Below, piece by piece: positions 12,060 to 58,974 of a DNA stretch of 64,000 nucleotides (the stretch's first letter is position 1; every line of letters begins with the position of its first letter). Both the position numbers and the translations under genes were made by a program. Origin of the DNA: Muricea muricata (Eukaryota > Cnidaria > Anthozoa > Malacalcyonacea > Plexauridae); contig OY979717.1 in NCBI GenBank assembly GCA_963855995.1, positions 65,667,855 through 65,731,854 of the forward strand, given 5' to 3'. The notes beneath the pieces are model-generated. The model made no database searches and was not told the DNA's origin. It saw nothing but the letters and a program-made list of their open reading frames with translations.

Positions 12060-13255
12060 CCAGTATTGACGATATAGGGACAATAAATCACAATAATTTC
12101 AATACTCCCGCCTTAGTAAAGAATTGTAAATCTATCCAGCCTTTAGCTGTTTCCAGTCGCATTGATAGGATTTCAAAGAAAAAGATTAACATCAACAACC
12201 TAATTAGCACACCAACAAGTGATGCTAACAACTATCTCCCTAAATCATACGGTAACAAGACGCCTGCTAAGGCGTTCACTCCGCCTGCCGAAACGAAAAT
12301 GGGCACAAGGCCAGGCAGGGCTGTAACTAGAGAGTTCCTTGGGGGTGGGGTATATTCACTTATTTCTGTTAAGCCCGACTAATTCCTTTTTAAATCAATT
12401 ATTATTAGGGTACCTTCCAAGGCATTTTAGCAGTAAGACATTGCTAGCACATCTTATTATTCACCTAAGATAACCAAAAATCAATGTCTGAGTGACTTGC
12501 CAGGCAATCTGTCCAGAGTCCTAGCAGGATTGAATTTTTTAGAATTTAATTCATAATACCACCAACATATAGCTGTTTTATTTTGCAAGTAAAGAAAATT
12601 TTACTAAAAGTCTACACAATACATCAATATATTAACCTGATAGCATCATTTAAATCTATTCTGTAGCACACTGCCTGAAGTCTTCACGATATAATTTCTT
12701 GGGAACTTTAAACTAATTATATACAACATATGTATTTCTGGAATTGGAATGTAAAATGTCTCTTACCTTTTATAATTATATGAGATCCCACAAGCAAATA
12801 AATCATTTTGAGCGAAATATTAGCATCTCAACATAGGAAAGAAATCACAACGTGCTTAGAATGAGGAACACATTTCCTAGACTCACTCCTTAATCATGGA
12901 ATGATGGAGCCTACCAGAATTTGCCGTTTCAAAACATTTCTCGAGCAATGTTTTAATTAAGAACCTTCCTGTCCCTTTTTGTTAACTATTACATGTAAAA
13001 AATTGTGTTTTGTATATAGACATTTCAGTAGAACTTGCGTTTGATTCTTGTGTAGAAAATTCTAAATATCCTTAAAAGAAGGAACACAACAGAAAATTAC
13101 GGAAACACGCTATCAAAACTTCATGGCGATACATCGCTCCTCGGTAAAGTTTCGCGGTGGAATTTGTCGTTATAAAACATTTTGCATGAGAATCATTGCA
13201 CTTAGAACCTTCTTGTGCTTAAAATGTTGTAGCATACATGTTAAAATGTGTGTTT
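12060..13255. other. No gene recognised
   Basis: AT-rich sequence without domain-bearing ORFs. If GTDC1 continues leftward, this may lie in one of its introns, but no further exon was identified here. Confidence 0.45.
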
Positions 13256-35838: not shown

Positions 35839-36490
35839 TTATATAGATCAATAGGCGAAAGTTGAGCGTATGCAAACTCGTACCAGTACCTCTGGTAATG
35901 ATAATCGGCATAGTCTCTGTGAGTAGATGAGATTGCAAGTTAATCATCAAGCTAGCCACTTTCTTTAATTAACACTAATATTCTTTTCGTTGATCTTTTA
36001 AATGATACTGATGTTAGGTATAGCTGGCTAGCTGACTAACCGGCTAACTGCCGACGTATTGTTGGTAATTATTGGATAAACAAAAGTTTTACTCATGATT
36101 GATGTCCATCAATAGAAACCAAGCCTTATATAAGAAAAACCCCATTGTCCGGGATTCAAAAATCAAAATATTAATCATGACAAATGCTGTTAGATAACAC
36201 TGTATCTAATACACGATGTAGTATCTGCTAAGTACGTATATAAATACTGCAAATTTGGTACTTCTACCTGCCCCTTACTTAATTTTATTCACAAAAATAC
36301 ATAGATGTTTAACAATGTTAAACGCTAAACTATTTTAAATATCAGTGCTCAATAGCTTAAGATACTCATTAAACAAAATTTAAAGGCATTTACTCGTTCA
36401 TTGAATGTATATATTTATATATCAACAATTTGAACCACTTGATGCCAAACTTGGAAGAAAAGGAATTTCTTGCATGAAAATCTAAAATTT

Positions 36491-36769
36491 TTACCAAGGA
36501 CTTAAGAACCATACCGCTGGAACTATTATTGCCAAAGTAATATCTTTAGTGAAGATAGCAAGCAAGATAACAAACACATTTAGAGCAACAATTATGCTAG
36601 TTGCTCTTTGTCGGTGTTTCTCCTTGTTCGGATCAATCATTTGATAGATAGCTGCATCCATTTTGTCAATTTTACTCAGTTTGTGTTTTTTCCCTCCAAA
36701 TTTTGACGGCCTCCCCGCTCCAGCTGCTGTTCCATACGTCTGAGATAATTTATCTATAGAATCCAGCAT
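36491..36769 (-). CDS. Small membrane protein, 92 aa, unknown
   Basis: A single-exon frame starts with ATG at 36769. Residues 1-54 are polar and lysine-rich (SKFGGKKHKLSKIDKMDAA). Two hydrophobic segments follow (about 56-74, TSIIVALNVFVILLAIF; about 78-90, TLAIIVPAVWFL), and the protein ends SPW. It resembles the 78-residue protein at 33845-34081 in its C-terminal half, and the two genes converge. The fold suggests a membrane hairpin with a cytosolic basic N-terminus. Function unknown. Confidence 0.55.
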   Translation of the reverse strand: MLDSIDKLSQTYGTAAGAGRPSKFGGKKHKLSKIDKMDAAIYQMIDPNKEKHRQRATSIIVALNVFVILLAIFTKDITLAIIVPAVWFLSPW

Positions 36770-38103
36770 ATTATGTCACAAATGTACTCTTAACTACACA
36801 CAGAAACGAACACTGTTCGCGAAGATTATCCAAAGATTATTTATTACGCGACTATATTCACAGAAAAGAGGAAACGACTCTTCTAAGTAAGTTCGCACTG
36901 ATCACAAAATGTACGCGAAAATAAGCTTTCACATGCAGCAAACGCAGCAACAAGTTACAGCCATGATATTCAACTCCGAGTTTCTTTTTAGCAGTGTAAA
37001 ATTCAGCTGCCTTCTATTATGGATCCAAATTGACTTTGCATCTTCTTAATCATTAATGAGCTCATAAAAAACTACTTGGTTTACTTTGTTTTTATCAAAA
37101 TAAGAAATCATCTAAAACATTGAACACACACTTTAAAATAAAAAGCAAAGTTAATCAATGCATGAATACGAATAACGTAGCAGAAAAGAATTTAGACAAA
37201 ATATACAAATTTTTCTTTCATTTTTAATTCATTTGATTTTCTCACTTATGCCTCACGCTTTCCTGCTGATCACCTGACCTTGAGTAAAAGGCCAAGAACT
37301 ATCTACTAAAAGAAATCCGTTTTCGTAGCTGTCTTATATCTTCTACTTTCCTTTGCCAGACTTGATAGTTCCATATGATCTCATCTGTATAGCTGAGGGT
37401 CTTCTTGGGGAGAGAGCAGGGGGAGAGGGGTTGCGAGTTCCCGCGTGCTTCCTTGTAAAACTTAACCATGTTCCTTGTATTTTTGTTACCTTTCTCTTTT
37501 TGCTTTGTTCTCGTATTTCCATTGTAAAATTTACAGTGTTTCCTTGTACCCCCCCCCCCCCCCTCCCCCCCATGAAAAGAAAACCTCTGGAGACTCTCGT
37601 AGTCAACAAGATTGCTTTATAATCTACTTTAAATAATAAATTTTTGGTAAGCCATGATTGATCTTGACTTAGTTTTAAAAATGGAAAAAAGCAGCAAACC
37701 CCCAAATGGACAGCATTTTGAAAATATTGTATATTTGTCAGTATATATTGTTTTCTACTTTATCAAAACATTCAAGGTGTATAAAAAAAGTAGACAAGTT
37801 TATAAGCGCTCTGTGTTTCGCGAAGCGCCTCAATGTACGATGTTTTTTTATTAAAATAGATTGTTTTGGTACTTATGATCTAAAAATACCCCACGAAAAT
37901 CAGAAATTTAGGGACCGTTCATTATTTATTAGGGAGGGGGGGATGGGTTATTTTTAAATTTTTTACTTTTTTTTCCTCTCTTACCCACTAATGATCATCC
38001 CAAAAACTTCAGGTCCCCGCTTTAGATAGCAACAAATTTTCGAGACCCCCCCTCGAGAAATAATTATGAAATTTTAAATAAACAGTACCTTAAATGGTTT
38101 GTT

Positions 38104-41100
38104 CTAATTATATTTTAAAAATGCATTTCTCCAAGACGCCGCAACTCTGCCGCTTCGAGTTGTCGTTAGAAGCATTTCACCATAGGACGATGAGAAATCT
38201 CCTCCTGAGCTTTGTACTTCTACTTCATCTTCCGTGGTTTCTATTTCTCCTCTCACCACCTCTTCTCCAGAACTCTCACTACTGCTACTCTCTGTGTCGG
38301 GCTTTGCAGTTTGTCCTTGTTTTGAAGTGACCAAAGGCAGTGTTTCTACACTTCGGGAAACGTGACAGATGATACGTTTTACTTTATCTGACTTTCTGCC
38401 TGTTTTTGGAAGCTTGTGGTAGTTGAGGTATTTGTCTAATTCTAATACTTTCAGTTTCTTTAGGTTACCATCAATAACAAGTTGTTGCCAGTCATATTTA
38501 TCATACGGCTTCTCATGCTTTTCTTGTTGATTTACTTTACGTTGGTTGTTACGAATGTGCTCTCTTCTTTCAATGTCAACAAGGTGTTCGATGGCTTTTT
38601 TATTAGATCTTCTTCAACAGCATAGTTTGATGCAAAATCCTCAATAGCTTCATTGTTTTCCATGTTAAGGCTTCCTTCCTTATATAAACGAGCAATCTGG
38701 ACACGAGGCTGGTAGTCATCGGCAGGTCTTGGTTTACCTTGTAGGTCTGTGAGCGGGGTTTTCCAAACTGGTAGATAGTTCGGTAAATTTGAATTGTCTG
38801 GAATTGGCTGAGGTATCCTGGAAATTGCAGGTCCAGTCCAAGAATGAGATGAGCGGTAGTCACACAGAATCCCGTCAAGGTGCTCCAAGCAACCTTGCTT
38901 CACATATTCTGTGAACAATTCCCCACGTCTGTTGTGACTTTTCTGAAACATGCAAATTTTTTGTATGTAAGCTGAACCTGGAACATTGTTTCTCGAAGCA
39001 TCAGAGTTACATTTGTGGTAAGACGCTAGGTTTTCTTCATTAAAGAAAAATAAACTGTCGATTTTCTGTGAAGTGTATGCTGTGATGTACTCCGATAAGA
39101 CTGGTGCATCGTCTACTCTCTTTTGAACTTCATGTACAACACTCCAAGCGTTTCTCTCCATTCTTGCATATTCATATTCTTCGTATTCTTGTAAAGAAAA
39201 ATTACCAATTTCTTCAGAAGTCATGCCTTGAAATCTTTTCTCATGTCCCCATTCAATTGTACTGCCATCTACAACAGCGTCCCCGATCGCGCTGTTCGTT
39301 CTTTCCGCCTCATTCTGTCCACTGTCATCCCTCGATCGATGACATCTTTCATGTAAATCTAAGCTAAAAAGTCGGGCAAGCTCTGCATCGCGGAAATTCA
39401 CAGCTAAATTTGATACCCCAACCCCTGGGCCTGCATCTGTAAGTTTCACCCATCTGGGCTTCACAGGTGGCAGCTTTAGCTCTCTCATAGTAACCTGGAT
39501 TTGTTTGCTTGATTTCAGTATACAATTCTTGATCTCAATAAGATCGTTTGTTGAACTCTCAGCAGAACCCTCTAAAAAATCCATGATTACTTGCAGTTGA
39601 TCAAGCAATGTACCAAGCTGTGGCAAGATACGGCTTTTAAATATAGCCATTTCACTTTCTTTTATAGCTTCTGAAGAAGTTTCAAATTCATCACGAGCAT
39701 TTGATAAGTGCTCCCAACAATGAGTTGCGCGTCGTTTTTCGTACTGGTTGTGAGGGCATCCAGGGTGTGAGGTAACATTTGCAAGATCGCCTTTTTCTGA
39801 CATGTCACAATATTGATAAATGTAATCATTAAACTGTGCACACAACTTTCGGAATTCTTTAGAATAGGTTGTTGATACCATACATTTGGCTTCGAAAACA
39901 GGATGATTATGACGAAGCATGACGGTCTCACTAGCCCATACAGAACCAGTACTCGGAACAAAAGCTTTTGGTCTTATGATAACAAAGTGATTGTCTTCCT
40001 TGTTTGTCAACACTGGTTCCTCATTCTCCATTTGTACTTCCTTCGTGAATATTCTATGTGCAGCTGGGGTGACGTAGACCAACTTTTCCGGCCGGTCATA
40101 CTTTGGTAGTTTTTTTGCTTTCTCTGCATCAGTGAGGGTAATGATTCTCTCATTTCGTGTCTTTGACAAGCCCTCGGACGTGCCTGGTCTTATGTAATTC
40201 TTATCATCGGCACTGTACAAAATTGCCAGGTCATCTGTTGCATAATGTTCATTTGAATCAGTGAAGTACTGCATTCTACTTTCATTTGTCTGGTCGTCAT
40301 TAGCTACTTCTTTGGAAGGACTCTTCGCAAATAAGGCATACTTTAAGTTTTTTACATGGCCGCGTTGATATTTTGTGTTTTCATTATCTCGGTCCTCTGC
40401 TTTAGGTGGCTTTTTAAAGCAGAATAACCCTTTCCCTTTGTGTTTTTTAGCCTGGATTGACCTCTTATTCTTCGGTCTACTTCTGTTGTATACAGTAGTA
40501 TATGACTTTACAAGCTTTCGCCCTCTTCTTTTCAAATTATAATTAACAATGTTGAGGCAATCTCTGGATTTCACTCTGCGATTTGTGTACATCACTGCGT
40601 CTTTCCGTCTGCCATGATATGTGGCCTTGTCCTCTATAGCCTTTGCCAGAAATTCTTCATCTTCACTGTCAAGTAGGCATGGTCTTCCCTGGTTTGAAAG
40701 TGCTCTTCTCTTTACTCTTCTTTCTTCGAAAAGTTCTTGGGCTTTCCTTTTAACTCTCTGCTTCCACTTCTGATCATTCTTGTTTGAGAGTAATGCTTCA
40801 AAAGAAGCTATTGTATTTTTAGTTTTGCATATGTTGTCCTGGATTTTATCTAGACCACTTCTCCAGGTTTTAGATTTTTTTGTATAAAGAGATTGCAGAA
40901 CTTCCAATTTCTGTTGTGCATTCTTAAGCTTTTCTTCAAGATGCGAGTGCTCCAGATCTTCAGCAGCAGTTATAGTGTTTTTCCAATCCTCTGTTGTTTG
41001 AATAATTCTATCTGTTGCTCGTTTAATTTCATCTGATTTTATTCCAAGATGATCCAGTTCAGAACGGGATCTTAAAAGATGGGGAGAGAAACTAGAATGG

Positions 41101-41920
41101 TGATGGTTGCATTAACTTATTGTCATTACTGTACATCATTAACATGCTATGAAAAATATTATGCACATCTTATATTCAACAAATCATTAAAATTTTAAAA
41201 GGTACAAAGCTAATATAGCATAAAATTTGTAAAAATAACTGTTTCTTTGACAGTTCGTGTGGTGATAATACATTAAAATCACCTGTTAACACCAAGGAGA
41301 ACACATGCAACCTTTTTATCCCATTCTGAATCCATTGTTGATAAAATGGAATGCACAGTTTCTGAATTTAAGTCAAATCTGTTTTTTTCTTCCTGTTGGT
41401 TGTTCAATTCTTCTAAAATAAAATCAAGTGCTGGTTCCATATTTCCATCAGGTGGTCGTAGAACGATGTAGGATTTGCCTAAACTTGATAAGCGAATAAT
41501 AGAGACAAACAGACCAGTATTTGAGTTAAGCAGAGTTTCGGTAAACTGTATTTTTATATCTTGGGTCGCTGTATTTGGGACATAACCAGTTTGATATCCT
41601 AGATATAGTTCTAATGCATAATCAAATGGTAGAATAGCAGTCGCATATTCCCTACCATCGCGGGCCTGAAACTGTGCAGTAAGCTCGTTGAGGAGTGCCA
41701 AAAGACCACTTATTTTATCTCTTTGCTGTTTAGACTTAGCGATGGCTAGTTTTTGCACAAGTTTCTCACGAAGTTCAGAAGTAGATGACAGAGTTTGCAT
41801 GGATACTGTGATGCACTGACTGACACCAAACTTCACACTTTCTCTTAGACTTGAGCGAGCATCATGCGGCCCAGCTTTCTTCTTGCTAGGTTCTCCACAA
41901 TTATTATTATGTCCAGACAT
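38104..41920 (-). CDS. Large DDE-like transposase candidate with SAP-like tail
   Basis: Exon 1 (41920-41283, starts MSGHNNNCGEPSKKK) and exon 2 (41070 onward) join in frame across a 212-bp GT/AG intron. The zero frame ends at 38532 (1058 residues). A basic region (residues about 320-430) precedes a core with candidate catalytic residues SADDKNYIRPGTS (about 500), KLTDAGPG (about 757) and DDSGQNEAERTNSAIGDA (about 800), a D-D-E order seen in RNase H-like transposases. A -1 frame overlapping at the heptamer A-AAA-AAG (38601-38595) continues 163 codons to 38104, adding a SAP-like segment (LVIDGNLKKLKVLELDKYLN) and an acidic serine-rich tail ending TTTRSGRVAASW. Either programmed -1 frameshifting or a one-base indel explains this. 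I have seen similar unnamed proteins attributed to cnidarian genomes; no family name is claimed. Confidence 0.75.
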
Positions 41921-42076
41921 CTCAGTATGAAATTGAAGGCACTTTCAGTATTATTTTACATCATTCACAAAATGAACAACAAATTCATTAAATGCCACAA
42001 AGCTGACCCAAAGTATTTCTCTATGGCGAGTTTACTGACCTCATTATATGCAGGCGCATCAGATCAAACAACAAAA
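41921..42076. promoter_or_regulatory. Divergent promoter region of the 12-kb transposon
   Basis: These 156 bp separate the start codons of the two divergent genes (minus at 41920, plus at 42077). It is AT-rich, with no clear TATA box. Shared control is inferred from position only. Confidence 0.45.
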
Positions 42077-42247
42077 ATGGCGGATCTTAATGTACTATTC
42101 ATGTTTGAGGAGCAAAATATTGCAACAAAACTGCCCCAAGGGACTTCTTTACCGCTTCTTCGTGAACGCTTTTGTCAACTTTTTGGCCATGAATGTGGTG
42201 CTTTGCAGATATATGATAAAGATTGGAGCGAATGGGTCAATATACCG
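42077..42247 (+). CDS. 5' exon of the transposon accessory gene
   Basis: The ATG at 42077 (context AACAAAAATGGCGGA) opens a frame reading MADLNVLFMFEEQNIATKLP, then LLRERFCQLFGHECGALQIY and DKDWSEWVNIP. The pattern of a short beta-rich domain ending in YDKDW-EWV resembles PB1/ubiquitin-like N-termini; this is a weak structural guess. At 42248 the sequence becomes CAGGGGCGGATCTAGG, a hAT-like terminal repeat, so the exon end or its splice donor has probably been disrupted. The natural continuation is likely the frame at 48451-49611, where the phase suggests NIP followed by EDFTL. Confidence 0.5.
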
Positions 42248-42440
42248 CAGGGGCGGATCTAGGATTTTCGAAAGGGTAGTCAAATAAAAAATGTAGGGCG
42301 TGGCCAAAGGTGTGACTATGGGCGTGGCCAGCAACCACAAATTTATGATTTGGTTGAAAAACTTCCCCAGGCCCCAAAAATGCCCTCATGACAAAATAAA
42401 ATATGAATATCACCTCCAGTATGCTCAGCATTTTCCCTTG
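42248..42440. mobile_element. hAT-like terminal fragment
   Basis: CAGGGGCGGATCTAGG at 42248 is the common hAT terminal sequence, followed by GGGCGTGGCC repeats at about 42297 and 42320. No matching right end was found downstream, so it is a one-ended fragment. Confidence 0.5.
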
Positions 42441-43576
42441 GTTCAACAAATTGATTGAACAACAATTTGTTTCTAAATTTTAACAGAGTCTGGATAATAA
42501 TAAGTACAAATATTTCTATGCAATACAGTAGAAAGACCAAGAATACACAGAAATAAAGACCACTTCTTATCAGTAATATTTAAAAAAGCTTCAAGTCCAA
42601 CCAAGTCATTTTTAGCTATCCCTGTATCTAAGCACTCAACTGAAACAGACAAAGGTAACAGTCACAGGTTATTGATACTTTTTTGGAAGTGCTTACCATG
42701 CTCTTTTATAAGAGAGAAAAAAACAAGGAGGATTGCAATAATACCCGGCCTTAAGAAAAAGTTCAGTAGATTTTAAAATCCGAAGGGTTTTCACTTTTCA
42801 CTAAACTATTGTCACCTACCATTACCAAGGGCACAGAACTGTACAAGCAATTACCAGACCTTAGACACACAATTAATGTTTGGTGAATCATGGTTTGTTA
42901 AATTTAGCTGTCTTAGCACTAACAATAATCACATATTCACATCATCGCATTACATAATTGGTGGAACAGTTACTTGAGTTCTTAATCTAATAATATTTGT
43001 TAGTTATCATGACTGAATTTATGGAACACATGTGGTCTGTGGTCGATAAAACTCTATTTAAATTATAAAGTCGATTATAAACTGATAAACGTATTGAATA
43101 TTCACAGCAATTTTTTATTGTCAATTAAAATAACTCCTAATAATGCATTTGACTCAATGTTTCAACAACAAACATTACATATCATGAAGCTATAGAACAC
43201 ATAACCTTCGACCTTTGCACCGACCACGCGAACGTGTGCTAATTTGAACTGACATATTAAATATTCATAACAAATAAAGGATAGAGCTACGCATTAAACA
43301 AGGTGTCTTGCCTTATTGCTGTACACTTCTTGCCCTGCCTCCTTGCAAAAGATAGGATGATGGTTTCAGCACTAAAATTTCAAGCCAGAGAACATCCAGT
43401 GTCGTTAAGAGCGTCTAGCAGTTTATCAGCCGACTTGGCTTTCAGGTTGTCGAGTCTTCAAAAGCGCGTCATTCGCCTTTCGAACGAACTCATCGTCATT
43501 CGAGTCAAACGCAGCTTTAACTCCCTCGAAGTCGCATTCACTTATTTTAAAACACTGTCGAGTGTAAACTTACAAC
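42441..43576. other. Interior of the 12-kb transposon, no gene seen
   Basis: An ORF at 43303-43650 is composition-driven and overlaps the left end of the nested P-type element. No domain recognised. Confidence 0.4.
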
Positions 43577-43812
43577 CACTGAGCTATACTATATATCTGG
43601 AGATCGCATTCCCGTCCAAAAAGTGTAATCGAAAACATGGCGGATTGTGACGTAAAACGCGTCACTGTTCCCTATTTTTTTCGGATGATCGCTGACCAGA
43701 AAAGCAGTCCAAAGCTTTCCTCCCCCCCTGTTCCCCCTGGATCATTGCCTAAACTTTCAATGCAATTTTCCCTATTGAAATTTTGTAAACTGCGACTCAC
43801 TTTGTTTAAAAC

Positions 43813-44571
43813 ATGCCTCGTCCTTGTTCCTTTTTTTGGTGCAAGAACTCTCGAAAGAGAAAAGGAATATCTTTTCACCGGTAAGTTTTCCTCAATATTT
43901 AACCTGTGCTATAGTTATACGCATTTCTTTTATACGCGAAATGTTCGTCACTCAGTTGTTTTGCATCTCGCCATGTTTTGACGAGATCAAAACTTTTGCT
44001 GTATTTTTTCAGCTGAATATGTGGTAAGGCGATGTTTGTTTTTCGTGATTCTATACAAGCTTGTTTTTGCTTTTAAGTTTGAAATTATTAGGAACAGGCC
44101 TGACAAATGCAAGCGAAATTTAGTTCTATAATGCAAAGAACTTACAGCTTTGGCTGACACTTTCAAAAGCTGAGCTGTTTTCGTGAAAGTTTAATAGCTA
44201 ACTGTGGTTTAAGCAGTGATGGTTTAAGTCCTACACTAAGAAGTATAGTTAATGATTTACAGTGCTTCTCAACCGGAAGCCGATTTCATACACACGACGT
44301 CGACATGCTTTATAAAATTTACAGACAATTGTTTTTTGATCTAATTACAGTTTTCCAGGTAAAGTAAAAAGTCCAGAACTGCTCGGGAAATGGGTTCAAC
44401 TCAAGGATTAAACAGCTGTTCACCAGTAGAAATTGTTCCTGTGCAAGACAGCCGAGTTTGTTCGGAGCATTTCAGTGCTGAAATGTTTCACATGCTGTGC
44501 CAACAATATTTGAAAATCTTGAACTTCATAGCGAGCAAGCGACACCAACAATATTTGAAGTGCATTCTCAG
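43813..44571 (+). pseudogene. THAP zinc-finger gene, decayed
   Basis: Exon 1 (43813-43880) encodes MPRPCSFFWCKNSRKRKGIS, giving the two N-terminal zinc ligands (C-x4-C). The donor GTAAGT splits an arginine codon. Exon 2 (from 44351) restores HRFPGKVKSPELLGKWVQL, then shifts frame to DSRVCSEHFSAEMF (C and H ligands) and again to HAVPTIFENLEL, the AVPTI box. It ends at a GTCAGT donor (44572). THAP domains bind the ends or subterminal sites of P-type transposons. Two frameshifts mean the finger cannot be made as one chain from this copy. Confidence 0.8.
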
Positions 44572-45438
44572 GTCAGTACTTTTCACCCAAAAATTATGCG
44601 TATACCAACATAGGCTAGCTTGGAGTTTTTTACATTATTTTGCATTTTTACATGACTGTTTTTATACAAAAAATAATAGAGTTAAATACAATAATGTTCT
44701 TAATGAGAAGTACCTGCCAGGTTAGTTGAGCATATCACTTGTTATGGTTAGTGTATGATTTCTAGCATACCAGCATGCACATAGTGGTAGTACTTTAGCA
44801 ACCATGCATGGTTAAGAAATCTGGGGTGCTGGTTTTTGTTTCTTTATATAATTTATTTTTTCCCTTACACTAACCCAGTCAGTGTTATATATAACAAAAT
44901 GTATATATATATTTATAACAGTGAATTAAAATGGTAAATTTATTGATGTTTTCTAATTCCAGGAAGATATCACAGATGGTTTAATTGGATCCACTGGAAT
45001 GTCATTGGCATATATGTCTAGACCAAGAGAGTATTGAGCTATTGTATTATTTGGAATAGTGAGTCTAAAGCACTATACTATATCAATGGAATCACAGGAA
45101 ATGCTGGTTATTTTACTCAATATATTATATTACTGATTACAGAGATAACTCGCTGGTTAGGTCATGAATTAAAACATAGTGTGCAATGAACAGCGGAATC
45201 AAGGAAAGTTATCAGAACAATTAAGACATATTTTGCTTATTGTATATGCATTACGCATCTAATGCAGTTAATAGTATCAACATTGTCTCAATAATTTGGG
45301 GTTGTGTGTCCAATACTGTCATAATATAGAAAAATTGTGCCAGATAAATGAAGGAAGTTAGCAAGTAGATTTTCCTAATATGTACAATAAATCTGTTTAC
45401 TAGTTGTCGCTGGTACATTAGCTCTGGTATTTCATTAC

Positions 45439-45689
45439 AATTGATGATAATGAAAAGGGTGGAGGATGTATATTTTACCAGAATGCATTAGGAGTATCAA
45501 ATATAAATAATGCTGAAAAAAGGTGACAAGTTGCACAAAGCTAATTGATAGAAATTTTCAGTTGGCATAAGTAAGAAAATAACCTACTATATTCTGTCCA
45601 TTCTTCATTAATTTACTTTTTAAAAGATTTTGAACCGCTATGCATTCTGGTAAAATGTGTAACTGCCATCTTTTTTATTATGGTCAATT
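45439..45689. mobile_element. Small inverted-repeat element, family of 31812-31997
   Basis: The left TATTTTACCAGAATGCAT and right ATGCATTCTGGTAAAATGTG, with outer AATTGATGATAATGAAAAGG and its inverse ending GGTCAATT, match the element at 31812. No ORF. Confidence 0.65.
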
Positions 45690-45787
45690 TGATGTTTATG
45701 CTATATCTAGTGCATAGATAGGCTAAGTTCACCCATAAAATTGAGGTAAGACAAGTTGCCAAAAATGAAAAAAATATATACTGATTA

Positions 45788-46048
45788 GGAACTGGTCATA
45801 AAGTATGGGGGGGGGGGTGGGGGGTGAACTATAAGAATTTAATTATTTAAAGGCTAAAGTTTGTGTGCCCCACCTGTGATTTTTGTACAAATATACATGA
45901 CCCATCCCCTATTTGGCACTGGAAATTATAATGACACCCCCCCCAGTATATCCTTAAAATTTTCATGTCCCACCTCTATTTGCAACTTAAAAAAGTCATG
46001 ACCCACCCCTCAATTTCTACAGCCCCCACATACTGTATGACCAGTCCC
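45788..46048. mobile_element. 261-bp miniature relative of the 12-kb transposon
   Basis: The ends GGAACTGGTCATAAAGTATG and CATACTGTATGACCAGTCCC are inverted. TTA lies on both sides (45785-45787 and 46049-46051). The GGGAC-TGGTCAT pattern and TTA flank parallel the GGGACCGTTCAT ends of the 12-kb element, and both carry G/C tracts next to the termini. Confidence 0.7.
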
Positions 46049-46184
46049 TTACATTTTAGTTTATAGAATAATTCATTAAAAGAAATGTTATTATTTATTA
46101 AACAATTAAAACAAATACATTACAATATTCAACATTAAATTATTATTAAAGTTGTATATACACTCATTAAAAATTTTTTTAAAA

Positions 46185-47506
46185 TTAGTTATTAAGTGTA
46201 ATATTAGTACAATTATTAAAAATGTTGGATTTTTTGCGCCCTGTTCGCCTTTTCTTTTGTGCAAGAGGCATACCAATCTTGCGTGCCCGTTTTCTCAGCA
46301 GAGCCAGCATATCATTCCTGTAAATCATAATTTAAGATTTAGTAGACATAGCACAGTATATAGAAATTATTTTGTTTTTGGACATACTCGCAGTTGTTCA
46401 TTTGGTGGTCTTTTAGGCCACATTTCCAACAACACCCTAATTAAAAAAGAAGTCAATCTATTTATTGTTGTTGATTGTATTTGCACATTTCATACCAATA
46501 TACACTGTAACTCAATTCAACCTAATATTACCATACCTTTAACCTTCCCAAATGGCTGGTCAGCTTTTTGTATGGAAACAAATAAAAAGATCAATTTTTA
46601 ATTAAAAATTTACAATAATATAAAGATTAGCAAATCAGGAAATTCAAGAATGTGTTGGCAACCTAACCCTTATTACCATTTGGTATGTGCATTACAATAA
46701 TAGCCAATAGAAAAGAAAGTGCATAATTTTTACCATTTCCTCCTCCATAGTTTTCATCATCTACAAATAATAACAGATAACTAAGCAATGAACAAAAAGA
46801 TCCATTTTTACTTAAAAAATATACAATAATATAAAGATTAGCAAATCATGAAATTCAAGAATGTGTTGGTGACCTAACCCTAATTACCATTTGGTAAGTA
46901 CATCACAATAATAGTCAATAGAAAAGAAATTTTTACCATTTTCTCCTTCATAGTTTTCTTCATCTACAAGTTACAAAAAAATAATTGGAAATAAGATACA
47001 TGTATGCAAGTAATAAACAGACTGCAGATAACTACTTCAATGAAGTGAACAAAAGATCAATTTTCAATAAATAACCACCCATAATAATATAAAGATAAGA
47101 AAATCAAGAAATTCAAGAATATTTGACATGTGCATTACAATAATAGTCAATAGAAAAGAATTAGCGTATAATTTTTACCATTTCCTCCTTCATATTTTTC
47201 TTCATCTACAAATTACAAAAAAATACTTGGAAAATAAGATAGATGTATGCAAGTATTAATATAAACAGACTATAGTCAGTACAGATAACATAACTGTTTT
47301 ATAAAACTCAGATGATGAAATATACTGTATATGAAATACCTTCATTCATTTCGTCCTGTTTGTTTGCTAAAGGATAACAGATCGTAATAATATATTGACA
47401 TTTAATTTATTTGACAGGTATTTGTATGTAAGCACATTTGTAAAGGTTTCGTACATGTAAAAAATAAAAAAAATCTCACCTTTTTTCTCTCGTTTGCTAT
47501 CTGTCA
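46185..47506 (-). CDS. Zinc-knuckle protein encoded by 27-nt micro-exons (5' end missing)
   Basis: Five micro-exons of exactly 27 nt, each bounded by AG and GT on the minus strand, lie at 47506-47480, 47366-47340, 47205-47179, 46963-46937 and 46760-46734. A 49-nt exon (46436-46388, donor GTATGT) and a terminal exon (46317-46185) follow. All junctions keep phase 1 until the last one. The translation gives acidic nine-residue units (EEKYEGGN, DEENYEGEN, DDENYGGGN), a CCHC knuckle CWKCGLKDHQMNNC and a basic tail (RKRARKIGMPLAQKKRRTGR) before the stop. Nucleic-acid binding is likely from the knuckle. The last three micro-exons lie in tandem repeats of about 200-250 bp, so they arose by duplication. 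Upstream exon(s) with the start codon were not found. Confidence 0.65.
46578..47210. repeat. Three tandem copies carrying micro-exons
   Basis: Blocks at about 46578-46765, 46794-46970 and 47046-47212 share ATATAAAGATTAGCAAATCA, AAATTCAAGAATGTGTTGG, AATAGAAAAGAA and the micro-exon at their right ends. The spacing is about 200-250 bp. Confidence 0.8.
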
Positions 47507-48450
47507 CTAAAAAACCACACAATTTTCCGTTATTATTTTTTATTTGAGCAATAGAAAAAATATAAACCATAAACGATGCTGAGCTATCAGTGAGGGTCGG
47601 TAAAGACTATTATTTCAGCATGAAAAAAGTCGCGTCGTAACTCAGTTTTAATCAAAGCAAAAAATGTTATGAATAAGCTCCTTTTTTTCAAGACCTCTAG
47701 TTAATGCCAAACATATAGTACACTAAAACTCAAAACAGTCTTTAATTCAATATAAAATTTAAAAAAATACTTACAACACTTATCGGATCTTGATCGGATC
47801 TGATTTTTTTATTTTTCCCAATTTATTTTTCACAAAATCAGGGGGGGTGAAAATCGAGCCCACTATCCATTGAGCCCCTATTGGTCAGCGATCATCCGAA
47901 AAAAATAGGAAACAGTGACGCGTTTTACGTCACAATCCGCCATGTTTTCGATTACACTTTTTTGACCAAAAATATTAAGGAGTGCAGTCTCCAGATATAT
48001 AGTATAGCTCAGTGCTTACAACTCAATTTTACTTATGCGAACGCATATTAATTTTAGTTAGGCGGAAGTCAGCAAGTGTATAGTTCAATGCTAAATACTA
48101 CGTAATTCAGTTTAGGCAGACTCTGCATATTAATTTTAGTTAGGCGGAAGTCAGCAAAACATGATGTTTTGGCCAATCAGAACTCCTGAATATTGCGTAA
48201 AGTTAGGCAGACCCCCGCAAAGTTTAGGCAAACGTCATTTTGCCTAACTCGAGATCAGTTATGAAATCTGGACTGTCAATAAACGCCACAAAATTTATGC
48301 AAAGTTGTTTTGCCTTAACTAGAGGTCAGTGAGAGTAACTGGACCGCCAACAAATGTAAAATGTGTATTTCTGTATTATATCTAATTTTGGAGAGATAAC
48401 TATCGCTAGAATTTTTAATTGGTGAAATTTTGCGCGTGTCGCGTGCCTAA

Positions 48451-49611
48451 CTACCAGAGGACTTCACTCTGACAACAGGTCGACTGAAACTTAAAAGTGT
48501 TGAATTTCACAAGAATGTCACGGAGTCGGGGAGTATAGTTCCAAAAAGCAGCAAACAACAAGCAACACTGAAATCAAGCAATGCCTGCCTAGTTGTCAAT
48601 ACAGATAGACTTATTACAGCAAACCCACCTTACTTTTCTTTACTTATTCCTAATCCACATTCACCAAGACTGAGGTACTATAATGAAATCACCCCGATCC
48701 TTTACAATGAAACATCAGAAGAATTCGTGAGTGCAGAAAGATATCGACATTATGTAATTACTCAAAGGAGATGGAGATATGATACTAACAATTTGATTTC
48801 TGGATTCACATCTTTTACTGATAATATCAATGAGTCAGATGATCACAGTGGACTGAAGCAAAATGTTATTAGATATCAAAGCGTTCCTGGCAACCTCAAC
48901 AGTGGTGATGTACATCGTTGTGGTAACACCATTTCAACACTAGAGAAAAAAATCTCAGAAGGTGAGAAAATTAAAACTCAATTGGTGGAAGAAAGGAAAA
49001 CCTGTTATTCACTGGACATGAATGTTCTCCCTGGGGGAAACAACACACTACAGTTTATAGAGCAAAAGATTTCTGCTTTAACAGATTCAATACAAAAGTT
49101 GAAGCAACTATCTGGAAAGGCAAATGAAGTTTACAATGTACTATGCAGGAAGTTTGATAAGACATCTGCTGAGAAATCTGAACAAGGAAGAAAGAAACGA
49201 AGGAGAAAAGAACAAAACAAAAAGAAAAGACAAAAACGACAGAGGAACCTAGAGAAACATACCATAAACTTACTGTCAGTTATTTTAATTGAGCCTCCAA
49301 GCACTTTTTCATTAATGCAAGAACATTTTGAGCCATTTATAGCAAAAGACTCTTTAAATCATAGCAACTTGAATTTAGATATCTTAAAACCAAGATTTCA
49401 TCTCCAACCCATAAAACAACTTCTTGAAAAAGGGTGTGTTAGCAAAGATGTGGAGGAAAGCATGAAGTCTCTCATGTTAAGACTAGTTTCAAAAAAGGAA
49501 GAAAGAGCAAAAAAAATGGTGAAAAAAAGAAGAAAATTAGCAAGAGTAGCACTCAACCTACTTTGCCTTCTTACTTCAATAAGCCAGCTAGAGAGATACA
49601 TGCAAAGATGA
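48451..49611 (+). CDS. Transposon accessory protein, basic coiled coil (3' exon)
   Basis: The frame is open from 48451, beginning LPEDFTLTTGRLKLKSVEFH. It runs through NPPYFSLLIPNPHSPRLRYY and SAERYRHYVITQRRWRYD to the stop at 49611 (387 codons including the stop). The middle is heptad-like (STLEKKISEGEKIKTQLVEE, then NTLQFIEQKISALTDSIQKL), followed by a strongly basic stretch (KKRRRKEQNKKKRQKRQRNL), a likely nuclear-localisation and DNA-binding patch. It has no initiator near its start and is probably the continuation of the exon at 42077, with the nested insertions in between. Just past the stop, another frame reads DEYLSDQECSTDSSWCQD, suggesting a small C-terminal frameshift. Function unknown; it is the second gene of the 12-kb element. 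Confidence 0.6.
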   Translation, partial: LPEDFTLTTGRLKLKSVEFHKNVTESGSIVPKSSKQQATLKSSNACLVVNTDRLITANPPYFSLLIPNPHSPRLRYYNEITPILYNETSEEFVSAERYRHYVITQRRWRYDTNNLISGFTSFTDNINESDDHSGLKQNVIRYQSVPGNLNSGDVHRCGNTISTLEKKISEGEKIKTQLVEERKTCYSLDMNVLPGGNNTLQFIEQKISALTDSIQKLKQLSGKANEVYNVLCRKFDKTSAEKSEQGRKKRRRKEQNKKKRQKRQRNLEKHTINLLSVILIEPPSTFSLMQEHFEPFIAKDSLNHSNLNLDILKPRFHLQPIKQLLEKGCVSKDVEESMKSLMLRLVSKKEERAKKMVKKRRKLARVALNLLCLLTSISQLERYMQR

Positions 49612-50040
49612 ATATCTGAGTGACCAGGAATGCAGCACTGACTCATCATGGTGTCAGGACAGTAACAATGAATAGTGTACAAAAAATTAAAAAACCAGCA
49701 AAAGTTGACATTTGTGATTTATGAGAACATGTTATTACATAATAAAGTTTTTTATTGGATAAAGAAGAATTTATTGCATAATAAAGCATTTCTAGTTAGT
49801 GTTACCCACAGACAATTTCCTTTCTCCAAAAAATTCACAAGTTTTATGAAGAAAGAAATTTTTTCAGGTCCCTCCCCATTTATATTTGAAAGAATTGGAG
49901 GCCCCCCATTCTTCTTTCTGAAAAACTTCAGGTCCCCCCATTCTCACACCCATACCCCCCCCCCCCCCATCCCATAAATAATGAACGGTCCCTTAAACTT
50001 CAATACCCGGAGGAAGGTTGTGTCTTTTACGACAAGTTAA

Positions 50041-50475
50041 ATATGCCTTGCGTGCAAAATTTAAATGCTTAAAAGTAATTTTGACCTGGTAGATGTCGGG
50101 TGTTGTATTGCTGCACAAAATCTCAGAGAATGTGCTCTTGTCTAAGCCGTTCAAAACGTCGCACGGACTTCCATATCTTTAACAAAATTAGCTTTGTGCA
50201 TGTTTAATTTATGTATTTACGTAATTTGCACACATCTCCCAAGGGACATTTGATTAAAATTGGAACATTTCTACGGAAAAACGATTCTTATTAAAAAAAT
50301 ATACGTTCGTATAAAAAAATATACGAAATATACGTAAAATAGACGTTTTGAATTTGCTAAAACTCAATCAAATTTCTTGAGATTTGAACAGCAATAAAAC
50401 GCTTAACATATTTTCTATACCTACCAACTCAAAATAACTTTTAAGCATTTAATTTTCGCGCGCAAGCCATTTTTA
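50041..50475. mobile_element. Imperfect inverted-repeat element
   Basis: ATGCCTTGCGTGCAAAATTT at the left and AAATTAAATGCTTAAAAGTT-type words inverted at the right (AACTTTTAAGCATTTAATTT, then GCGCAAGCCAT) pair over about 90 bp. No ORF. Confidence 0.5.
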
Positions 50476-51340
50476 ATGTGTTTCAAAAACACGAACAATA
50501 ATTTTATTTATACTACACCGTAAGTACCCACGCAATGTTTATTGATAAAAACGTCATACCTCAAACCGCTTTGCGAGTTTGAGAGCTGTTTCAGAATTGT
50601 CTACTTTTTCTTGATAAACCCTGTAGTAATTAATTATAAAATCATTAGTTTCAGTACATCAAAAGATTATCCCATTTGCGATCTCGTACTGGTTTGTGGG
50701 ATTCAGTTTGGACAGTTTCCGCATCGTACTTATCACATCTCCCGGTAATGACACGTCAACTTGCATTTCTTTGCGAACCGAATTGCCGAAAACGCAGTAA
50801 ATAGTACATTCAAACACCCAGTATGCTGAAGGAAAACATTACACACTTTATTTACAGCGGTTTTTCCCATTTTTGTATAGATCTAAAGCTAAACCCCAAT
50901 AGCTAAATGAAATGCTGCATAACACCCAAAAATTATTCTGCACTATCGGTGATAGCTGAATAATTAAGAAGAGAAAAAACAACGACGACGGACAACGGTG
51001 ACCGTCTCTTAAAATTCAAAGCTATAATTTAAACAACAAATGTAAAGCGAAACAATTCCTTATGGTTTCCAGTCTACTCCTAAAGGCTTCTTTATCACAG
51101 TCACAAAATCTTGAATTCGTTTCAGATTCGTCCATAGCACTGCATGTTCTTGCCAAGCAAGCCCTGGTCCAGATTTCGTCTATTCATTTTGCCTGATTTC
51201 CGTTTTATTGCTTGACTCTCTATTTCCATAGGTTTCTTCCAAGCCTTTCGTTCATTATTCTACATTGCGAATTCATAGAAAAAATTAAAGAGAGAAAGAA
51301 CTTCATGTCATTATGAGGGAATATAATACTTATAGTATGC

Positions 51341-54300
51341 TTATCCGTTTAAACAGCGTAAACGTACCATAATCTCACATTTGTCACCACACTTTTCATG
51401 ATAAAGGAATTGATGTTTGGAACGCCAAAAAGGATCTTCAGCGCTGTAGTATTTTGGGGGGTTTTGACATTGAGGAAGTTCATTAAGGGCGATTGTCATG
51501 CCTCTGTTACTGTGAGCATCAATATGACAATGAAGGTACCACCATCCTGGGTTATCTGCCAGAAACTCAACCACCGCATAACCACCAGCAGGCACAATGA
51601 TGACGTCTTTACGAATTGTGTTTCTGTTCACCTCAATGCCGTCAGGTACTGTTCCATTCGTCCAGTGCGCGGGACCACAATCTTGGCCGGTCAAATCTGG
51701 ATTTACTTCCTCAATAGCGCCATTGTCATCATATTTGGGGTACGCAATCTTTGCCACAAAAAAAGAATGACCGTGTAAATGAGCTGGATGTGTTGCGAGG
51801 CTTCCACTGGAAAGCGACGAAAACACAAATCGCACTGTTCGAGGCTTAGATATCGGTAGAATTTTCCCCTGGCCAATATGAACGGCATGCGCACATGTTT
51901 TATTGCACGTGGTAATGTCTTGATACTTGCATTCGTTTTCAACAGCTTTGTTCTCGGTGTTAACGAAGGGAATATTGTTGGGTAGTTCATTTGAAAGGCC
52001 GTTCAATGCTGGACCCTTTTCTCCAAAACCAAAGTTGAAAAAACGCTCGATGACACGACGGTTATGTTTTGGAATTTGGGGCCACGGTGTCGGGTCAAGT
52101 AAACGAAGTTCCTTTACATTGTGACAAGTAGTGTTGGCTTGTGAAGGGTATTGTTCAAATGGACAGTTCAGTGCTGTGCATTTTTCCTCCTCACAACGAT
52201 AACGACCATCATAATGATCAACTAATACTGGTTCACCAGGAGCCTGTTCTTTATCAACATATTGAAGATACGCGTAGCCAACTTTAACAGGTGTTGTGTA
52301 ATCGTTGCATTGTACCGCCACAGTCTCGATTCGAATTGGGAAAGTCGTACCAGCTTTGAAGGTCTCGTAGGTTTCCAAAATGAAATCATAACGCTCAGCG
52401 ATATGAAAGATTAAAATGTCAGTTTCGAACTTTTCAGTAAGATAGCCGTCCGTAGACATTACATGTAACTTATGTCCGTCAATGGAGAAGCGCAGGACAT
52501 TGCTTGACATAATTCCAATGATTCGAAAACGATATTTCTTACCACTTTCCACAAAGAAAATTGGTTTTAAGTTATTTTCATCTAAATGGTCAGCCAACTT
52601 CACTCCATTTAATCTGAATAAATCCAAACGTGTACCGTAAAGACCGAACAATGGAACAAGCGGAAACATTGAACGGTCTGGCTCGCATATGGCATTCGCT
52701 GTGAAAGTAGCACTACTCGTCATTGACTCTTCAATATGATCTCGTATAGCAAACATCTTTTCCTGAGGGTTATCTACCACGTTTTTTAGCAGTCTTTTAC
52801 TTCTTATAGTGTTTCTGTCTCGCACGATTAAAGCACCAACGATGCCTTCATCTCTCTGGAAAAGCGTGTGAGAGTGATACCAATGTGTCCCAGGAGGATT
52901 GGCGCGAAATATATACCTAGAATTAGAATTTAAAACTTGTTGAGAAGTTTGAGAATTAATGCTGTTGTTAACACAACAATACCAATTAGAGCGAAACATT
53001 TTAGCCATTTATTCATTTTAACACGGTGTCGGCTGTAAAATGGTGTAGAAAATTACTGTAAAAGATGCTTGCTTATAAAAGCAATCGTTGCAAAGTCAAA
53101 ATTTACACATACTATTACTTCATATTGTATACACCTAATTCATTTAAGGTTGACATTGACAATAGTCAGATGTGCAATATGATCGATCGAGTGCCAAAAG
53201 AATGGTGATTCTTTACATGCGAATGTAAAAGATATCATTATATAGATACTACATTTATAATCCAGCAAGGCTGCTGATGTGTTGATCTTATTTAAAACTA
53301 TATTATTACCATCATTTTTTATGCTCATGCATATTGCACATTTGCCATTTGACTATTGTTGATATTATACCTCAAATTCAAATTGTCCAATCAAAATATC
53401 GTATTGCTACCACGTGATGAGGTGATTTTTCACTGTATCTCACTTTTAAAGTGAGATTCAGTAAATATCTCACGCTGTCATGGCAACGCTTGTACACGCA
53501 AGCACAGATTGGCAAGTTTTCGTAAACAAAAATGGCGGAATGTGCGAAAAGTTTGATGAACTTCACGAAGAATTATAAGTATTTTGGAGGACAAGGACGT
53601 TGAAAACACAAATATTTAAAAAATTAAAAGGAATTTTATGTACTTCTCGTTATAAAAATAAACAAAGAACTGGCTATTTTGTATTTTAGAGCATCATATT
53701 CACGAAGGTATGTTCAACTTGAAAAACTTAAAAGTTTATTCTTACGAAAGTTTTTGATTTTCGGTACAATATATCATTTATAGACCCTCCGCTCGGGGGA
53801 TTCAGTGAAATATTTCCTTCAGTGATGATATTTCCCGAGGGCAAAAGCCCTCGGAAAATATCATCACTGAAGGAAATATTTCACTGAATCCCCCGAGCGG
53901 AGGGTCTATAAATGATAAATATTATACCTCAAATTCAAATTGTCCAATCAAAATATGGTATTGCTACCACGTGATGAGGTGATTTTATAACAAACTTACT
54001 TGCAGGGAGGTTGGTTCGGGATTAACGCACCGAGGGGTCTGACAGCTGTTCGAACCTACCGAGCGAAGCGAGGTAGGTTCGGACAGCTGTCAGACCCCGA
54101 GGTGCGTTAATCCCGAACCAACCGAACCTGCAAGTAAGTTGGGTTTTTATCCCATACTAGACTTATCTTCTTGTGTTGTTTTCCGATTCTCGCCGAGTCG
54201 CCGATGTATTTTGTCAACATTTTCTCTTCTTAAACTTATTGGTCTCTTAATATTTCTTTATCAGGCTCTCTATTGTCTTTAGTTTACAATTTTCCGTTTC

Positions 54301-58800: not shown

Positions 58801-58882
58801 TTTCAGTGTTGGTTACTAGATGGAGGGCAACCAATGAAAAAATAAACCAATGCATACCTAAGAAACGAAAAATCATTGACAT
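51341..58882 (-). CDS. Laccase-type multicopper oxidase, secreted
   Basis: Exon 1 (58882-58428) starts at a methionine followed by a hydrophobic signal (MHWFIFSLVALHLVTNTETA) and ends in TF. Exon 2 (52916-51341) completes the arginine codon (RYIFRANPPG). The 5.5 kb intron is GT/AG. All four copper motifs are present: SMHWHGMHQ (about residue 122), GTHWYHSH (about 163), HPAHLHGHSFF (about 527) and WYLHCHIDAHSNRGM (about 613, axial methionine). Length is 676 residues if the frame reads to 51341. A GTACGT donor after CEIM (51368) and an AG at 51268 could instead add a basic final exon to about 51130. The family oxidises phenols, amines or metal ions with O2 reduced to water. The substrate is unknown; roles in cuticle or skeletal tanning or metal oxidation are only analogies. 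No breaks were found. Copies of a repeat lie upstream of both exons. Confidence 0.9.
53033..53098. repeat. Dispersed copy of the laccase upstream repeat
   Basis: GAAAATTACTGTAAAAGATG followed by CTTGCTTATAAAA matches 59150-59200 and 60838-60892. It lies about 115 bp upstream of laccase exon 2, whereas the 59.1 kb copy lies about 250 bp upstream of the start codon. Confidence 0.75.
53365..55070. repeat. Direct duplication plus fold-backs in the laccase intron
   Basis: The block at about 53428-53912 (with AAAGTGAGATTCAGTAAATA and ATGGCGGAATGTGCGAAAAG) is repeated in the same direction at 54581-55052. Each copy ends in a fold-back (53780-53912 and 54930-55048) around TTATAGACCCTCCGCT and its inverse. 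A further fold-back at 53994-54141 pairs CGGGATTAACGCACC with GGTGCGTTAATCCCG. Outer words ATTATACCTCAAATTCAAAT occur at about 53373 and 53930. No real ORF. Confidence 0.75.
55361..55803. mobile_element. Diverged relative of the 13.3-kb fold-back
   Basis: Inverted arms include AACGAAATTTTGTCTAA against TACAAAATTTCATCTCA and AACTTATGACATCACAGTGC against its inverse. The order of blocks parallels the element at 13256-13767. Confidence 0.55.
55808..55873. repeat. (TTTA)n microsatellite
   Basis: About sixteen uninterrupted tetranucleotide units. Confidence 0.95.
55874..58427. other. Laccase intron, no further features seen
   Basis: Only short spurious ORFs. No splice-bounded conserved segment was recognised. 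Confidence 0.5.
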
Positions 58883-58974
58883 ATTTCTAGGGCACATAGC
58901 ACATGTAGTAACGAGGTTGCCACTTCTCCTAAAACAAATTGATTGTAAATGTAACAATCCTGGGATCAAGGTTG

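What the first reader, a model, noticed from the sequence alone, without database searches (positions are those of the whole stretch)
37911..49992. Twelve-kilobase two-gene transposon with an unassigned DDE-like protein
The ends are 19-bp exact inverted repeats flanked by TTA. Inside, two genes diverge from a 156-bp spacer: a large protein with a plausible D-D-E set (SADDK, TDAGPG, NEAERTNS), a basic region and a SAP-like tail, and a basic coiled-coil partner with a possible PB1-like start. The two-gene divergent layout and TTA duplication recall PIF/Harbinger, but the protein does not. This is the best candidate here for an undescribed transposon superfamily.
Basis: partly seen in the sequence, partly recalled or inferred. 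Interest (0 to 1): 0.8.

Follow-up and report, generated by a model that had tools for sequence, protein, structure and literature searches.

The report
Animal transposon family lacking known superfamily
This stretch of an animal-type genome holds a 5.9-kb jumping gene, split by another inserted element, whose predicted cutting enzyme matched none of the enzyme families it was compared with, although it marks its target sites much as the well-known Harbinger group does.

Summary
The element is real: exact 19-bp inverted ends (37911-37929, 49974-49992) flanked by TTA. It is not a 12-kb unit but 5,873 bp plus a 6,205-bp nested insertion (42247-48451, TACC duplication). Three other copies in the same 453-Mb genome end in the same TIR and lack that insertion.

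The protein matches 33 further places in the genome, mostly at 30-55% identity; one founds a second clade (23%). They share a D..D-43 residues-E set. Four variants of the TIR were seen at both ends of elements. Of 27 two-ended elements checked, 26 have identical 3-bp flanks (25 TTA or TAA, one TAG). Two MITEs with the same TIR have natural empty sites with one trinucleotide. No transposase profile of Pfam matched 26 relatives; hhalign against three Harbinger-type proteins gave nothing, against the second clade E 9e-35.

Best reading: a cut-and-paste DDE transposon group with Harbinger-like TWA targeting and a transposase outside Pfam, so a candidate superfamily.

The parts
37908..37910 (+). 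left target site duplication TTA
   Evidence: sequence; same 3 bp on the right; TTA on both sides in all four copies of the family
37911..37929 (+). left terminal inverted repeat GGGACCGTTCATTATTTAT
   Evidence: 425 sites genome-wide at up to 1 mismatch, reversed-pattern control 0
37911..49992 (.). whole element as it lies in the window: 12,082 bp = 5,873 bp element + 6,205 bp nested insert + 4 bp duplication
38104..38590 (-). C-terminal tail of the transposase, SAP-like at about 38362-38466; out of frame in this copy because of a frameshift near 38590
   Evidence: frame continuous here in L031, L033, L035; SAP E 0.14, below cut-off; Ku70 SAP chain 1jjr at E 0.25 with profile A1
38532..41091 (-). 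transposase exon 2 as open in this copy (852 codons from 41090), holds D295, D552 and E596 in the numbering of window:38535-41090:-
40206..40208 (-). first conserved acid, D295 of SADDK
   Evidence: D in 18 of 19 distinct divergent places with a residue there, E in 1
39435..39437 (-). second conserved acid, D552 of TDAGPG
   Evidence: D in 19 of 20, N in 1
39303..39305 (-). third conserved acid, E596 of QNEAERTN
   Evidence: E in 19 of 19; 43 residues lie between D552 and E596, same number in L067
41092..41282 (-). intron of the transposase gene (191 bp, GT..AG, frame kept)
   Evidence: sequence; inferred, no transcript seen
41283..41920 (-). transposase exon 1 (212 codons plus 2 bases)
   Evidence: similar stretches in other families
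41921..42076 (.). 156-bp spacer between the divergent genes
42077..42246 (+). 5' part of the partner gene, cut by the nested insertion
   Evidence: contiguous with the 3' part in L031, L033 and L035
42247..48451 (.). nested 6,205-bp insertion with TACC duplication (42243-42246 and 48452-48455); not part of the transposon
   Evidence: absent from three other copies; coordinates
48456..49611 (+). 3' part of the partner gene (coiled-coil-like, basic stretch); frame shifted near its end in this copy compared with L033 and L035
49974..49992 (-). right terminal inverted repeat
49993..49995 (+). right target site duplication TTA
12835..12995 (-). paralogous empty site of a MITE (L053) that has the same 19-bp TIR: single TTA at 12891-12893

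Best explanation
The feature is one damaged copy of a cut-and-paste DNA transposon of about 5.87 kb. Shown: it ends in a GGGACCGTTCATTATTTAT inverted repeat; elements of this group sit at TTA or TAA, once TAG, with the 3 bp duplicated; their shared large protein keeps three acids (D295, D552, E596), and the spacing of 43 residues between the last two is the same in the window and in the most distant relative. Inferred: the large protein is a DDE transposase that binds the TIRs, cuts the element out and joins its 3' ends to the two target strands 3 bp apart, and host repair makes the duplication. It or a close relative also moves short MITEs with the same ends in trans. The basic coiled-coil-like partner may help DNA binding or assembly, as the second Harbinger protein is thought to (recalled, not tested). 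The transposase matched no Pfam transposase model, so the group is best filed as a candidate superfamily with Harbinger-like targeting. The window copy is probably not autonomous: its partner gene is split by a 6.2-kb insertion and its transposase has a frameshift.
For: Copies: three others end in the same TIR, 5,873 bp (L033), 5,855 bp (L035) and 8,551 bp (L031 with L047, which has extra sequence of its own near one end). TIR: 425 sites at up to 1 mismatch, control 0. Of the first 100 listed sites, 39 pair as + then - within 20 kb and 22 are unpaired: 34 pairs are 356-374 bp apart (MITE size), 4 are the transposase copies, 1 is a MITE carrying an insert. TSDs: 4 of 4 family copies TTA; 18 of 19 fetched short elements (of 35 listed non-transposase pairs) have identical 3-bp flanks, 10 TAA and 8 TTA; four divergent two-ended elements give TAA, TAA, TAA and TAG. 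Empty sites: found in held sequence for 2 of 24 elements whose flanks were compared. Protein: 74 matches in 37 places; acids conserved in 18/19, 19/20 and 19/19 distinct divergent places; the second clade L067 keeps DDK, SDAGPG, AEK and the 43-residue spacing and aligns at E 9e-35. MITE-to-transposase link: the MITE aligns with both ends of the transposase-bearing L042 element (86 bp at 75.6%, E 6e-11; 82 columns at 74.4%, E 2e-5).
Against: The RNase H fold was not tested. None of the four copies of the window family has a transposase frame intact from end to end, so activity is not shown. The empty sites belong to MITEs that share the 19-bp TIR, not to the window element, and in one of them (L064) the single trinucleotide reads CTG, not TTA. 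Of seven divergent places fetched with long flanks, both ends were found in four (L037, L042, L040 with L041, L045 with L068), one end in L043, a doubtful one in L044 and none in L046. D295 and D552 are 256 residues apart with a helical stretch between, so D295 as first catalytic acid is assigned by conservation only. In the loci searched the partner is significantly similar in only two other places (L046 E 8e-7, L019 E 6e-5), with no significant match to the candidates in L042 and L037. dN/dS between family copies is 0.34-2.95 in exon 1, 0.42-1.17 in exon 2 and 0.45-0.98 in the partner, little support for constraint within the family.
Confidence: 0.85

Rival explanations
1. It is a very divergent member of the PIF/Harbinger (PHIS) superfamily: same TWA target, G-rich ends, two genes, but a transposase too diverged to see.
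For: TTA/TAA duplications, GGG..CCC termini and two genes; published PIF/Harbinger features are TWA TSDs and, mostly, a second ORF (PMC4482050, passages).
Against: No DDE_Tnp_4 match in any of 26 aligned members at E up to 1 or in L067; hhalign against three Harbinger-type proteins from the same genome E 0.74 and 0.86 (three sequences make a thin profile); 0 of 125 listed PF13359 hits on contigs 1-3 lie inside a TIR pair, the nearest to a TIR being 9.5 kb away; exon 2 alone is 852 aa; no Myb/SANT match in the partner; one relative uses TAG.
Confidence: 0.2
2. It is already in Repbase or Dfam under a superfamily without a Pfam model (Academ, Sola, Novosib, Kolobok, Dada, Zator and the like) or as an unclassified DNA transposon.
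For: Pfam does not cover every superfamily (recalled). Zator makes 3-bp TSDs (PMC10045372, passage); Academ is recalled to make 3-4 bp TSDs. Neither Repbase nor Dfam could be searched.
Against: TSD length speaks against several: Zisupton 8, Kyakuja 7, IS3EU 6 (PMC12730594); IS481EU about 4, 15 or 25 (PMC10045372). [quoted passage not shown] A literal search for TDAGPG and the TIR in the open-access library gave 0 papers, which says nothing about databases.
Confidence: 0.3
3. It is a distant branch of the rve (retroviral integrase / IS3-like) group.
For: By eye TDxGP and NxAERxN resemble the second and third rve motifs (recalled pattern). 3-bp TSDs occur there: most IS3 members have 3 bp and LTR elements 3-6 bp (PMC10045372, passage).
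Against: No rve match in 26 members; D295-D552 distance of 257 positions is unlike rve (recalled).
Confidence: 0.08
4. The large protein is not the transposase but a passenger; the ends are mobilised by an ordinary Harbinger element.
For: Harbinger-type genes are very common in this genome (1218 first-look candidates, 150 scored) and the TSD is Harbinger-like.
Against: The same protein lies between both ends in four TIR variants and beside one end in about three more; no listed PF13359 hit lies inside any listed TIR pair.
Confidence: 0.07

Closest known systems
PIF/Harbinger (PHIS)
   Same: 3-bp TTA/TAA target duplications, short GGG..CCC inverted ends, two genes, many MITEs
   Different: no DDE_Tnp_4 match, no hhalign signal, much larger transposase with a long helical stretch before the second acid, partner without Myb/SANT match, TAG used once
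rve-type elements (Ginger1/2, IS3EU, IS481EU, IS3, retrotransposon integrases)
   Same: second and third acid motifs look alike by eye (recalled pattern); 3-bp TSDs occur in most IS3 and some LTR elements; PHD finger in one relative (L037), a domain recalled from some Ginger elements
   Different: no rve match in 26 members; the eukaryotic DNA transposons of this group make 4-6 bp or longer TSDs; wider first spacing (recalled)
KDZ (Kyakuja-Dileera-Zisupton)
   Same: large transposases with accessory domains (recalled)
   Different: 7-8 bp TSDs; no KDZ match in 26 members, while the 66 listed KDZ matches of this genome lie 39 kb or more from every place of this protein
P elements
   Same: animal DDE transposon; a P-type transposase lies in this window
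   Different: hhalign E 0.012, probability 3.7%, judged chance; Pfam sees the P gene at 1e-45 but not this one

Membership tests
cut-and-paste DNA transposon | terminal inverted repeats | tested here: met
cut-and-paste DNA transposon | fixed-length target duplication, single in the empty site | tested here: met
   26 of 27 two-ended elements have identical 3-bp flanks; 2 empty sites, both of MITEs
cut-and-paste DNA transposon | DDE/D transposase with RNase H fold | tested here: inconclusive
   three acids conserved and D2-E spacing shared with L067; fold prediction switched off
PIF/Harbinger (PHIS) | TWA target duplication | tested here: met
   25 of 26 duplications are TTA or TAA, one TAG
PIF/Harbinger (PHIS) | transposase of the DDE_Tnp_4 / IS5-like family | tested here: not met
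PIF/Harbinger (PHIS) | second protein with Myb/SANT domain | tested here: not met
   no Myb/SANT match in the partner
KDZ | KDZ transposase profile and 7-8 bp TSD | tested here: not met
   TSD 3 bp
rve group (Ginger, IS3EU, IS481EU) | rve catalytic domain by profile | tested here: not met
   no rve match in 26 members; the 23 listed genome hits lie 319 kb or more away
rve group (Ginger, IS3EU, IS481EU) | TSD length | tested here: inconclusive
   3 bp differs from Ginger, IS3EU and IS481EU but occurs in IS3 and LTR elements
CMC/Transib | C(2)C and H(3-4)H between D2 and E | tested here: not met
   C(2)C in 0 of 21 rows; H(3-4)H in 7 of 21; a few rows incomplete here
MuDR/hAT/P/Kolobok/Dada | C/DxxH between D2 and E | tested here: not met
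   5 of 21 rows only; a few rows incomplete here
Academ, Zator, Sola, Novosib | transposase similarity | not testable with these tools
   Repbase and Dfam not available; no sequences of these at hand

The most novel reading that the evidence does not exclude
A new superfamily of eukaryotic DDE transposons with a transposase of about 1,200 aa (D..D-43 residues-E), GGGACYGKTCATWATTTA-type ends and Harbinger-like TWA targeting. Because non-autonomous elements are sorted by TSD length and terminal bases, its MITEs may have been filed as Harbinger or Tourist, making it a hidden driver of part of the 'Harbinger' MITEs in animals.
Probability: 0.45. Interest if true: 0.75.

Novelty: new variant of a known kind. 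Interest (0 to 1): 0.6.

Why it matters
Eukaryotic DNA transposons are sorted into about two dozen superfamilies (24 in Repbase, PMC12730594 passage). A group with several families and hundreds of TIR sites in one genome, but no Pfam model, would add to that list. It would also show that a TWA duplication and G-rich ends do not by themselves identify Harbinger, which matters because non-autonomous elements are classified by just such features (PMC4455052 passage).

Tried and rejected
Tried without result: Pfam on the window proteins, on 26 relatives, on L067 and on partners. The only match over a cut-off was the PHD finger in L037; otherwise noise, the best among the 26 being CHASE5 at 0.0027 in 3 members, none a DDE-type profile. 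NCBIfam and PHROGs: noise. Solved structures with profiles A1 and A2 and with the partner: Ku70 SAP at 0.25, an E8 chain at 0.046, coiled coils and designed bundles, or nothing. Relatives in viral contigs, in prokaryote genomes and in phage records: none confirmed; these collections hold few animal sequences. Rfam on 36000-52000: none. Nine literature searches: from the listings, no title or abstract start describes such a group; only passages of four papers were opened. dN/dS within the family was too noisy to use.

Rejected: the 12-kb single element (nested insertion); the partner's 6.2-kb intron; the intron before the SAP tail (frameshift); PB1-like start (no support); the P-element hhalign hit (probability 3.7%). 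The mean MITE identity of 75% mixes orientations and is not used. Some TIR-like matches at 5 mismatches are plainly chance (inside coding sequence or without G-rich continuation) and were left out; the one in L044 is doubtful. Three listed KDZ hits and their neighbours lie 3-6 kb outside a TIR site (by coordinates), none between a pair.

Rows dropped before counts: L024 and L028 (second loci of the same places) and the three near-identical copies; A1 used 26 of the open frames found, the rest being repeats of the same places or short. L059 is the one short element without matching flanks. L061 and L062 share flanks, so the 18 matching short elements are 17 independent insertions.
Full report
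WHAT IS THERE. The window is part of a 453-Mb genome (G000, contig 2). The 19-bp ends are exact and are the only matches in the window at 3 or fewer mismatches (expected 0.02). They are flanked by TTA on both sides. Genome-wide the TIR occurs 425 times at up to one mismatch; the reversed control occurs 0 times.

THE TRUE UNIT. Three other copies carry the same genes between the same TIR: C1:85135913-85141785 (5,873 bp, L033), C2:38393774-38399628 (5,855 bp, L035) and C1:88834081-88842631 (8,551 bp, L031 with L047, with extra sequence of its own near one end). Against all three the window has one extra block, 42247-48451, flanked by TACC. Without it and one TACC the window element is 5,873 bp, the length of L033. 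The insertion splits the partner gene, which is one open frame of 534 aa in L033 and L035. Among the four copies the frameshift near 38590 is in the window only; the tail is in frame there in the other three. Each of those has other breaks, so none of the four has an intact transposase frame from end to end.

GENE MODEL. Exon 1 is 41920-41283 and exon 2 starts at 41091, with a 191-bp GT..AG intron that keeps the frame. Exon 2 runs on into a tail with a weak SAP resemblance (Pfam SAP E 0.14; Ku70 SAP E 0.25 with a profile). The partner starts at 42077, is basic and coiled-coil-like, and has no significant Pfam and no PDB match. In the loci searched it is significantly similar in two other places only.

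A GROUP, NOT ONE FAMILY. The exon 2 protein has 74 matches in 37 places of the genome; 4 places are the window family, the other 33 match mostly at 30-55% identity. One of them, a 962-aa open frame at C1:67398614-67401499 (L067), is 23% identical and founds a second clade; as a query it gives 57 matches in 34 places, and both queries together reach 47 places. On 20 distinct divergent places D295 is D in 18 of 19, D552 in 19 of 20 and E596 in 19 of 19. There are 43 residues between D552 and E596, and likewise in L067. Of seven divergent places fetched with long flanks, four show both ends, with their own variants of the TIR: GGGAGTGTTCATTATTTAT (L042, 5,700 bp), GGGACTGTTCGTTAATTAT (L037, 6,087 bp) and GGGACTGGTCATAATTTAG (L040 with L041, about 9.2 kb; L045 with L068, about 7.1 kb). 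One end only was seen in L030, L043 with L022, L020 and L023; L044 is doubtful and L046 gave none. L037's transposase has a PHD finger (E 2.8e-8), and there the gene reads inwards from one end instead of diverging from the middle.

TARGET. All four family copies have TTA. Of 19 short TIR-bounded elements fetched (of 35 listed pairs that are not transposase copies), 18 have identical 3-bp flanks, 10 TAA and 8 TTA; L059 does not. The four divergent two-ended elements give TAA, TAA, TAA and TAG. Flanks of 24 elements were compared with the held sequence. Two MITEs have natural empty sites there: L053 against window 12835-12995 with one TTA, and L064 against L041:1314-1525 with one trinucleotide, which reads CTG. 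The MITEs share more than the TIR with a transposase-bearing element: 86 bp at one end (75.6%, E 6e-11) and 82 columns at the other (74.4%, E 2e-5) of L042.

WHAT IT IS NOT, AS FAR AS TESTED. No transposase profile of Pfam matches any of 26 members at E up to 1 or L067, whereas the same library finds a P-element transposase in this window at 1e-45. Harbinger-type genes are abundant in the genome, but 0 of 125 listed hits on contigs 1-3 lie inside any of the 39 listed TIR pairs. A profile comparison with three of them gives E 0.74 and 0.86, against 9e-35 for the second clade. The listed KDZ and rve matches of the genome lie 39 kb and 319 kb or more from every place of this protein. Published TSD lengths and motifs speak against several other superfamilies (passages of PMC4482050, PMC10045372, PMC12730594 and PMC4455052; only passages were seen). 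They do not exclude kinship with the rve group, where 3-bp TSDs occur in most IS3 and some LTR elements, nor with Zator, which makes 3 bp.

HOW IT LIKELY WORKS. Inference from the anatomy: a DDE transposase binds the inverted ends, excises the element and inserts it into a TWA site with a 3-bp stagger; the gaps are filled to give the duplication. MITEs with the same ends ride in trans. The partner may assist binding or assembly. Shown are the ends, the duplications, the empty sites of MITEs and the conserved acids; catalysis, fold and the partner's role are inferred.

NOVELTY. Works like: Harbinger in target choice. Member of: no family tested. The kind (a cut-and-paste DNA transposon) is known; the transposase lineage may be new. 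The untested fold and the lack of Repbase and Dfam keep this at a candidate.

Noticed in passing
window 5485-7615 (-): P-element-type transposase in two overlapping frames (Pfam TNP-like_RNaseH_N 1e-45, GBD 6e-43, HTH 1e-19; C-terminal part in another frame, 2e-12)
   Followed up: partly
window 51341-53008 (-) and 58394-59020 (-): Two multicopper oxidase (laccase-like) genes or gene parts next to the element
   Followed up: no
window 42247-48451: Nested 6.2-kb insertion with 4-bp TACC duplication and dissimilar ends; inside it 43574-43698 and 47882-48017 are 90-98% complementary arms of what may be a further nested element
   Followed up: partly
L037:5592-6122 (-): A related transposase ends in a PHD finger (PF00628, 2.8e-8) and its element is flanked by TAG rather than TTA/TAA
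   Followed up: partly
L059: MITE with a doubled left TIR and no matching flanks, perhaps an insertion next to or into another copy's end
   Followed up: no
L061 and L062: Same MITE with the same flanks on contigs 1 and 2: a duplicated genomic segment
   Followed up: no
L057: MITE of the same family that carries a 2.2-kb insertion of its own
   Followed up: partly
G000 contig 1 around 103485059-103520915: Two TIR sites and two KDZ matches in mirror order, suggesting an inverted duplication; the KDZ matches lie outside the TIR-bounded side
   Followed up: no
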